Below are positions 6,810 to 8,367 of a stretch of DNA of 64,000 nucleotides, piece by piece (positions within the stretch are counted from its first letter, which is position 1; each line of letters starts with the position of its first letter). The stretch is from assembly GCA_004297765.1 (NCBI GenBank), contig SCTZ01000200.1:1-64000 (forward strand). The letters are read 5' to 3'. The translations under genes and the position numbers were made by a program. The notes beneath the pieces are model-generated. The model saw nothing but the letters and a program-made list of their open reading frames with translations. It was not told where the DNA came from and did no database searches. The DNA is from Chloroflexota bacterium (GTDB lineage: Bacteria > Chloroflexota > Dehalococcoidia > FW602-bin16).

Positions 6810-7130
6810 ATGCCCGAGGAGAAGGAACGCGAAATGACCGTTCGCGAGGCCGGCAAGAAGGGCGGCGAAACCGTCAAGAAGAAATACGGTCCGGAGTTCT
6901 ACTCCAGGATCGGTAAGAAGGGCGGCGAAACCGTCGCGGAGGAGCGCGGCCGAGCTTTCTACTCCGAGATCGGCAAGAAGGGCGGCGAAGCCGTCAAGGC
7001 AAAGCGCGGCCCCGAGTTCTACTCCGAGATCGGCCGCAGAGGCGGCGAGACCGTCAAGGAGAAGCATGGTCCTGAGTACTACTCCAGGATCGGCAAGAAG
7101 GGCGGACGCGCCAAGAAGCAGTCCACCTAG
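6810..7130 (+). CDS. KGG-repeat stress protein (YciG/LEA_5-like)
   Basis: This is a small hydrophilic protein of 106 residues made of five copies of a G(K/R)(K/R)GG(E/R) motif. Four full 20-residue units (core KGGETV, then a variable linker ending FYS-IG) are followed by a truncated fifth. The coding repeat has an exact 60-base period from 6852 to about 7110. Proteins with KGG motifs include the E. coli general-stress protein YciG and the desiccation-linked Em/LEA group 1-like proteins; they are cytoplasmic and probably disordered. The ATG at 6810 follows GAGGAGGTGG; the ORF-track start at 6720 lacks a ribosome site. A strong promoter precedes it and a long hairpin follows, so it is a single-gene unit. 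Confidence 0.88.
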   Translation: MPEEKEREMTVREAGKKGGETVKKKYGPEFYSRIGKKGGETVAEERGRAFYSEIGKKGGEAVKAKRGPEFYSEIGRRGGETVKEKHGPEYYSRIGKKGGRAKKQST

Positions 7131-7152
7131 CTGAGCTCTCGCCGTTGCGGTG

Positions 7153-7193
7153 GCGAAAGCCGCTCTGGAGTGACGCTCCTGAGCGGCTTTCGC
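7153..7193 (+). terminator. Long hairpin downstream of the KGG-repeat gene
   Basis: GCGAAAGCCGCTC pairs with GAGCGGCTTTCGC, and the stem continues as GGAG/CTCC after one T-T mismatch, with a 5-base loop. There is no T tract, so it may be a processing or stability hairpin or a weak terminator. It starts 23 bases after the stop codon. Confidence 0.6.
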
Positions 7194-7306
7194 AGTGATC
7201 GGCCCCAGGCAGGATCCCACATCGCGTGTCTTACGCCATGCGCAACGTTGTTGAGTCTGCCGGCGCTTCCCCTGTCCCCTATCGATCTTTCCAAACGTGC
7301 ATTCTG

Positions 7307-7336: not shown

Positions 7337-7382
7337 GCCTAGAGAGGGGCCGTGCTATCTACTCCACGCATAGGAGGACGCC

Positions 7383-7802
7383 ATGCCCGAATTCGCGAAT
7401 CCGTTTGTGAACATCGTTCCGCGCATGTTGACCAAGGCCGAGCTCGTACAGGCCCTGCGAATCGACATCGCAGCCGAGATCGAGGCCATCAATGTTTACG
7501 AGGCCCACTTTGCCGCCACCGACGATGAAGGCGCTCGACGCGTGCTAGCTCACGTGATCGCCGAGGAGAAAGAACACCTGGCCGAGTTCCTCGAAGTTGT
7601 AAAGATGCTCGACCCGGAGCAGGTCCAATATCTGGAAGAGGCTCCCGCGGATGTGACCGCCATCATCGCGGGCCGCGTCAGCGCCGCGGATGACACCAGT
7701 CCGACCGCTGGGACGATCTCCGGGGGACCGCCCTCACCGCCTAGAACTGTCGGCAGCCTGATAGATCAGCAGCCGCCCGCGGCTCGGATCGAGGCCGGGT
7801 AG
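7383..7802 (+). CDS. Encapsulated-ferritin-like (EncFtn) protein with probable encapsulin cargo-loading tail
   Basis: This 139-residue protein resembles the encapsulin-associated ferritin-like family, half-ferritins that dimerise to make a ferroxidase site and act inside encapsulin shells. The two-helix core covers residues 18-85: AAEIEAINVYEAH supplies the first Glu and Tyr, and LAHVIAEEKEHLAEF supplies the second Glu/His pair, followed by LDPEQ. Residues ~100-139 form a Pro/Gly-rich linker and then RTVGSLID near the C-terminus, which closely resembles the (L)TVGSL cargo-loading peptide of type 1 encapsulin cargoes. The start has AGGAGG five bases upstream. No encapsulin shell gene lies in the window; a rubrerythrin-like role without a shell is the alternative. 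Confidence 0.8.
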   Translation: MPEFANPFVNIVPRMLTKAELVQALRIDIAAEIEAINVYEAHFAATDDEGARRVLAHVIAEEKEHLAEFLEVVKMLDPEQVQYLEEAPADVTAIIAGRVSAADDTSPTAGTISGGPPSPPRTVGSLIDQQPPAARIEAG

Positions 7803-7805
7803 TCG

Positions 7806-8213
7806 TCAGTCTATCTCTTGATACCCCTCACCATACGTTGTTCCGGACGGCCCGGTTCCTGTTTGCGTAGAACCAGAGCCAGTGTTGCCGGCATCCAGGC
7901 CGGAGCCAACGCCGTGGGTGAGATCGGGCACATGGAAAGATCGACCGGTCATGGCTTGACCCCAGGCGTCAGGTCCACCAAGTTCCTCCACGCCCTCCGG
8001 GGGAATCGTGTCAGCACGCAGCCGTGCTGCTACCACGATCAGGTATTGGATCAACCGTAGTGGGCTGGCGAACTTCTTCGTCCCGGGCAGATGGAGATAG
8101 ACTACTTCGGGGAAGTCAGTTATCTGCTCACGCAAGTCGTCCCTGGTAAGACCACCCGACCAATCGAGGCCTTCAAGCTTCTGCTTGAGCTCGCTCAACG
8201 CATCGTGCTGCAC
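7806..8213 (-). CDS. Hypothetical protein with a Gly/Thr/Ser-rich C-terminal tail
   Basis: I do not recognise this protein. It is convergent with the ferritin-like gene, with 3 bases between the stops. The start is uncertain. A GTG at 8213 has GAAAGGA nine bases upstream and gives 135 residues; the track ORF runs to 8363 without a good ribosome site. Residues 1-75 look folded (LKQKLEGLDW, LTRDDLREQITDFPEVVYL, then a hydrophobic LIQYLIVVAARL), faintly like small DUF2795-type domains. Residues 90-135 are Gly/Thr/Ser rich and probably disordered. Confidence 0.5.
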   Translation of the reverse strand: MQHDALSELKQKLEGLDWSGGLTRDDLREQITDFPEVVYLHLPGTKKFASPLRLIQYLIVVAARLRADTIPPEGVEELGGPDAWGQAMTGRSFHVPDLTHGVGSGLDAGNTGSGSTQTGTGPSGTTYGEGYQEID

Positions 8214-8336
8214 GCCGGTACGTCCTTTCTGTCCCGGCCGCTGCTCCAGACATCGGAGGAACACGCGCCGGTGATACTGGACAAATAGCATTGGGGTGTG
8301 GGCAAGAAACGTGCCCCGCGACGAGGTCGGTTCCAG

Positions 8337-8367
8337 GCTCTTGCGACGCCATGCGCGTCGCAAGAGC
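8337..8367 (+). promoter_or_regulatory. Perfect 12-bp stem hairpin upstream of the enoyl-CoA hydratase gene
   Basis: GCTCTTGCGACG and CGTCGCAAGAGC flank a 7-base loop. It ends 29 bases before the ATG and 15 bases before the ribosome site, a position suited to an operator or 5'-UTR hairpin. No T tract follows. Confidence 0.5.

What the first reader, a model, noticed from the sequence alone, without database searches (positions are those of the whole stretch)
7383..7802. EncFtn-like ferroxidase carries a C-terminal motif matching encapsulin cargo-loading peptides
The core (EIEAINVYEAH, EEKEHLAEF) resembles encapsulated ferritins, and the disordered tail ends with RTVGSLID, close to the TVGSL cargo-loading core of type 1 encapsulin cargoes. 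No shell gene follows, so the shell must be elsewhere in the genome or the tail has another role. That makes it an orphan cargo and hints at an encapsulin nanocompartment in this lineage. It sits between a KGG stress protein and an unknown protein with a disordered tail.
Basis: partly seen in the sequence, partly recalled or inferred. Interest (0 to 1): 0.62.

Follow-up and report, generated by a model that had tools for sequence, protein, structure and literature searches.

The report
Encapsulin ferritin cargo, shell gene elsewhere
The gene makes a small iron-oxidising ferritin-like protein whose tail carries the address label for a virus-like protein shell, and the shell gene is in the same genome on another contig; this is a new example of a known iron-storage compartment rather than a new kind of system.

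Summary
Observation confirmed and interpretation largely right. The 139-aa ORF at 7383-7802 is an EncB/EncC-family ferritin-like encapsulin cargo (NCBIfam NF058679, 6.7e-32, over cut-off, matched through the tail; best solved relative M. xanthus EncC, 1e-23). Its tail holds TVGSLI, the core of known type 1 cargo-loading peptides, after a linker predicted to be disordered. It is not a true orphan: the same assembly encodes a type 1 encapsulin shell on another contig (G000:C28, PF04454 1.9e-67), closest to M. xanthus EncA (4e-86). The nearest relative, G020 (a Chloroflexi groundwater MAG), has the same split: cargo and shell on different contigs, tail LTVGSLIGEDQAT. In 30 inspected class genomes with an EncB-family protein, tail peptide and shell coincide perfectly (9 both, 21 neither; Fisher P = 7e-8). 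In 63 named loci, 38 of 39 peptide-bearing cargoes sit beside a shell; the exception is G020. Distant cargo and shell genes are known for M. xanthus EncC. I read this as an EncA/EncC-type iron-storage encapsulin in a Chloroflexota (Dehalococcoidia-like) lineage: a new member of a known kind. Open points: packaging is untested, the MAG has 8.95% contamination, and the peptide is sub-terminal without M. xanthus's basic residues.

The parts
7372..7377 (+). Shine-Dalgarno AGGAGG, 5 nt before the ATG
   Evidence: direct reading of the sequence
7383..7802 (+). EncB/EncC-family ferritin-like encapsulin cargo, 139 aa plus stop
   Evidence: NF058679 6.7e-32; PF22277 1.3e-7; PDB best M. xanthus EncC 7s8t 1e-23
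7383..7688 (+). helical ferritin-like core, residues 1-102, with invariant E32, E34, E61, E62, H65 (ferroxidase-type ligands)
   Evidence: AlphaFold2 helices 18-45, 49-76, 78-102; Foldseek to 5n5e and 7s8t; invariant columns in 26 sequences
7689..7742 (+). flexible Gly/Pro/Ser/Thr-rich linker, residues 103-120
   Evidence: pLDDT below 50 at residues 105-115
7746..7763 (+). TVGSLI cargo-loading (targeting) peptide core, residues 122-127
   Evidence: conserved in G020; tail peptide and shell coincide in 9/9 and are both absent in 21/21; matches published TPs TVGSLIQ and RLTVGSLRR
7767..7799 (+). 11 residues QQPPAARIEAG after RTVGSLID; the peptide is sub-terminal
   Evidence: translation; G020 also has residues after the core, GEDQAT
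7153..7193 (+). strong hairpin between the KGG gene and the cargo gene, no T-run; may separate the two transcripts (inference)
   Evidence: RNA fold of 7128-7230, -49.5 kcal/mol, z -3.5

Best explanation
The ORF is an EncC-like ferritin-like cargo (FLP with targeting peptide) of a Family 1 encapsulin whose shell gene lies elsewhere in the same genome (G000:C28:5099-5890). The helical core oligomerises, probably as a D5 decamer, and oxidises Fe(II) at Glu/His sites formed between subunits. The flexible tail docks TVGSLI into the luminal groove of the EncA-like shell as it assembles, so the enzyme is packaged and ferric iron mineralises inside the shell. Shown here: family membership, predicted fold, conserved ligands, tail motif, presence of the shell in the assembly, and co-occurrence of tail and shell in relatives. 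Inferred: decamer formation, ferroxidase activity, docking, iron storage, and a T=3 shell by analogy with M. xanthus EncA.
For: NF058679 over cut-off across nearly the whole protein including the tail. PDB best match M. xanthus EncC; model matches 5n5e and 7s8t. Type 1 shell in the same assembly, 1.9e-67, best PDB match M. xanthus EncA 4e-86. The shell tree places G000 with G020 (99/93) inside a 100/100 clade with EncA and G024; the cargo tree places G000 with G020 and EncC (99/91, long branches). Among 30 class genomes with an inspected EncB-family protein, 9 have tail and shell and 21 have neither. Among 63 named loci, 38 have peptide and adjacent shell, 1 has peptide without adjacent shell (G020), 2 have shell without peptide, 22 have neither, P = 1e-13. 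The shell contig resembles the window in GC and tetranucleotides, and its tgt gene has G020 as best relative.
Against: No packaging, activity or expression data. The assembly is a MAG with 8.95% contamination, so the shell contig could in principle come from another organism. The peptide lacks the basic residue after GSL found in M. xanthus (LTVGSLRR), and 11 residues follow RTVGSLID. The cargo tree has long branches.
Confidence: 0.9

Rival explanations
1. It is a free EncFtn-like or rubrerythrin-type ferroxidase, and the TVGSLI string is a leftover or coincidental feature; the protein acts unencapsulated.
For: Many relatives in the class are such tail-less proteins. The peptide here is not at the very C-terminus.
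Against: The tail-less relatives inspected in the class occur in shell-less genomes, while this genome has a shell and a tail matching G020's. TVGSL arises in about 1 in 10,000 shuffled tails.
Confidence: 0.06
2. The shell contig is a binning contaminant, so the cargo is a true orphan in this organism.
For: MAG with 8.95% contamination and 256 contigs; cargo and shell are on different contigs.
Against: Same GC (0.598 against 0.578-0.609) and a tetranucleotide profile within the window's own spread. Both shell and cargo have G020 as closest relative within the class searched, and G020 itself has both genes. The tgt gene near the shell is also closest to G020.
Confidence: 0.04

Closest known systems
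Myxococcus xanthus EncA shell with EncC (MXAN_4464) and EncB (MXAN_3557) ferritin-like cargoes
   Same: Closest solved relatives of both the shell (4e-86) and the cargo (1e-23); EncC is likewise encoded away from the shell (EncB and EncC locus tags in PMC11202242; the EncA tag MXAN_3556 is from my own knowledge); TVGSL core in the targeting peptide.
   Different: Targeting peptide TVGSLID plus 11 residues in place of RLTVGSLRR; only one TVGSL-tailed cargo found here against three cargoes (EncB, EncC, EncD); shell carries an extra Pro/Arg-rich C-terminal extension of about 27 residues; host is Chloroflexota.
Operon-type EncB_fam cargo and shell pairs of Chloroflexota, Methanoregula and others (G026, G008, L096-L152)
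   Same: Same cargo family, tail peptide of the same kind (TIGSLKE and similar), cargo gene immediately before the shell gene.
   Different: Shell about 31-35% identical to this one and in a separate clade; peptide usually followed by a basic residue and at or near the end; genes adjacent.
Quasibacillus thermotolerans IMEF encapsulin
   Same: Targeting peptide TVGSLIQ, very close to TVGSLID (PMC10960027).
   Different: Cargo is the IMEF four-helix family in a T=4 shell, not an EncFtn-type protein.
R. rubrum and H. ochraceum EncFtn
   Same: EncFtn fold and Glu/Glu/His metal ligands.
   Different: Weaker sequence match (6.2e-5 and 0.17) and a different peptide, SLGIGSLK.

Membership tests
Family 1 encapsulin FLP-TP cargo (EncB/EncC, NCBIfam NF058679) | Match to the family model over its curated cut-off | tested here: met
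   109.9 bits against a cut-off of 90, residues 1-126, model 1-117
Family 1 encapsulin FLP-TP cargo (EncB/EncC, NCBIfam NF058679) | Two-long-helix EncFtn fold with Glu/Glu/His ligands | tested here: met
   AlphaFold2 core pLDDT above 90; Foldseek to 5n5e and 7s8t; E32, E34, E61, E62, H65 invariant in 26 sequences
Family 1 encapsulin FLP-TP cargo (EncB/EncC, NCBIfam NF058679) | C-terminal targeting peptide after a disordered linker | tested here: met
   TVGSLI at residues 122-127 after a segment of pLDDT below 50; sub-terminal, 12 residues follow TVGSLI
Family 1 encapsulin FLP-TP cargo (EncB/EncC, NCBIfam NF058679) | Family 1 shell encoded in the same genome | tested here: met
   G000:C28:5099-5890, PF04454 1.9e-67; nearest structure EncA; caveat of MAG contamination addressed
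Family 1 encapsulin FLP-TP cargo (EncB/EncC, NCBIfam NF058679) | Shell gene adjacent (usual, not required) | tested here: not met
   Cargo on contig C1, shell on contig C28; same split in G020
Family 1 encapsulin FLP-TP cargo (EncB/EncC, NCBIfam NF058679) | Packaging into the shell, decamer formation, ferroxidase activity | not testable with these tools
   needs experiments
TIGR04535 ferrit_encaps (encapsulin-associated ferritin-like protein) | Score over the curated cut-off | tested here: not met
   70.8 bits against a cut-off of 125

The most novel reading that the evidence does not exclude
In this class, EncA-type shells have been paired with different, separately encoded cargoes: an EncC-like ferritin in G000 and G020, and in G024 an unknown protein (weakly DUF7482-like) divergently transcribed from the shell with FTVGSLIPGW near its N-terminus. 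That would be a new Family 1 cargo type with an N-terminal loading peptide.
Probability: 0.3. Interest if true: 0.5.

Novelty: new member of a known kind. Interest (0 to 1): 0.28.

Why it matters
It places a Myxococcus-type EncA/EncC encapsulin in a Chloroflexota lineage and gives another clear case of a ferritin cargo encoded far from its shell. The large encapsulin survey looked for Family 1 cargo within 5 kb of shell genes (PMC8346489), so split systems like this are missed by that method. The tail/shell coincidence gives a simple way to find others: look for EncB-family proteins with a TVGSL-type tail and then search the genome for the shell. The PF00210 search of the genome found only rubrerythrin-like proteins, so this may be its main iron store; that is inference.

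Tried and rejected
Other TVGSL-tailed cargoes in the genome: 58 hits to a degenerate TVGSL pattern against 77 for the reversed control; among in-frame TVGSL hits only this gene has the motif near the end of a credible ORF, the other long credible ORF being transporter-like with an internal match. Variants such as TIGSL were not searched genome-wide. DyP peroxidase as an alternative cargo: none found. Classical ferritin: only rubrerythrin-like hits, without a loading peptide. Co-variation between the basic residue of the peptide and the acidic shell residue that pairs with it in K. pneumoniae (Asp38; position mapped by eye from the GRR motif): this clade has P or Q there, but operon-type shells with basic peptides also lack Asp, so there is no clean pattern. 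G283's weak PF04454 hit (1.7e-7, 537-aa frame) was treated as phage-like and not counted as a shell.

Full report
What is there. The ORF at 7383-7802 (+) encodes 139 aa with a good ribosome-binding site. It matches the NCBIfam model for EncB-family encapsulin ferritin cargo over residues 1-126 at 6.7e-32, over the curated cut-off, and the Pfam EncFtn-like model over its gathering score. The best solved relative is M. xanthus EncC (7s8t, 1e-23), then the ferritin domain of the P. furiosus fusion encapsulin. AlphaFold2 with 26 aligned sequences gives confident helices at 18-45 and 49-76, a third at 78-102, a low-confidence linker at 105-115 and a short helix at 124-127 within the TVGSLI region. 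Foldseek returns 5n5e and 7s8t first. E32, E34, E61, E62 and H65 are invariant in the alignment; R. rubrum EncFtn variants E32A, E62A and H65A are among the solved structures listed.

The tail. RTVGSLID is present, followed by 11 residues. Published targeting peptides include RLTVGSLRR (M. xanthus) and TVGSLIQ (Q. thermotolerans IMEF) (PMC10960027; PMC11202242). The nearest relative, G020, ends LTVGSLIGEDQAT. A shuffle test gives TVGSL in about 1 in 10,000 shuffled tails.

The shell. A search of the window's own assembly finds one Linocin_M18/encapsulin gene, at G000:C28:5099-5890 (1.9e-67). Its best solved relatives are M. xanthus EncA structures (4e-86). In a maximum-likelihood tree it is sister to the G020 shell (99/93) inside a 100/100 clade with EncA and the G024 shell, apart from the Chloroflexota operon-type shells. 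Identity is 62.5% to G020, 49.8% to EncA and about 31-35% to the operon type. The shell lies between pyrimidine-biosynthesis genes and a LysM/M23-type peptidase gene, with no cargo beside it (gene names are my reading of the sequences).

Is the shell from the same organism? The assembly has 8.95% contamination, so this matters. The first 15 kb of C28 agree with the window in GC and tetranucleotide usage within the window's own variation. The tgt gene near the shell has its best relative in G020 (65%). Shell and cargo both have G020 as closest relative in the class, and G020 carries both genes, also on separate contigs. In G020 no shell lies within roughly 10 kb either side of the cargo. A DapA control from the window could not be compared with G020, whose 64%-complete assembly lacks that gene.

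Tail and shell go together. Of 393 class genomes, 10 have a clear Family 1 shell (an eleventh weak hit in G283 looks phage-like). Of 30 genomes whose over-cut-off EncB-family protein was inspected, 9 have both a tail peptide and a shell and 21 have neither (P = 7e-8). G024 has a shell but no EncB-family cargo over the cut-off. In 63 named loci from GTDB genomes, 38 have peptide and adjacent shell, 1 has peptide without adjacent shell (G020), 2 have shell without peptide and 22 have neither. The looser peptide pattern was set after viewing the tails, and the loci are not independent, so the P values are descriptive.

How it most likely works. By analogy with M. xanthus EncA/EncC, the core forms decamers that oxidise Fe(II), the tail docks in the luminal groove of the shell, and iron is stored inside. 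Sequence, predicted fold, ligands, shell presence and co-occurrence are shown here; assembly, loading and activity are inferred. The only other PF00210 matches in the genome are rubrerythrin-like.

Lineage. I therefore call it Chloroflexota, probably Dehalococcoidia in the GTDB sense.

Novelty. The cargo family, the shell family, the peptide and the split arrangement are all known. What is new to me is the EncA/EncC type in this lineage, the sub-terminal non-basic peptide shared with G020, and the G024 candidate cargo; one library search for encapsulin with Chloroflexota found no relevant paper. I score it as a new member of a known kind.

Noticed in passing
L161:5575-6183 (G024:C89, + strand), shell at L161:4607-5470 (- strand): Protein with FTVGSLIPGW near its N-terminus, divergently transcribed from the G024 encapsulin shell; weak DUF7482 match (0.041). 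G024 has no EncB-family cargo over the cut-off, so this may be a new cargo with an N-terminal loading peptide, as known for IMEF ferredoxins.
   Followed up: partly
L001:2338-2418 (C-terminus of the G000 shell) and the G020 shell in L018: Both shells carry a Pro/Arg-rich C-terminal extension beyond the EncA fold (for example GARGRRGRRPRAGEGEQEGV). Its role is unknown.
   Followed up: no
window 7153-7193: Very stable hairpin between the KGG gene and the cargo gene without a T-run; possible transcription boundary or processing signal (z -3.5).
   Followed up: partly
window 6810-7130: KGG-repeat stress protein with five KGG/LEA_5-like repeats (PF10685 8.9e-20) directly upstream of the cargo.
   Followed up: no
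window 7806-8363 (- strand): 185-aa ORF with a Gly/Ser/Thr-rich tail and no convincing family match.
   Followed up: no
L163:1369-1821 and following ORF (G000:C115): Rubrerythrin-like protein followed by a Fur/PerR-like regulator ORF; possible iron or peroxide stress locus.
   Followed up: no
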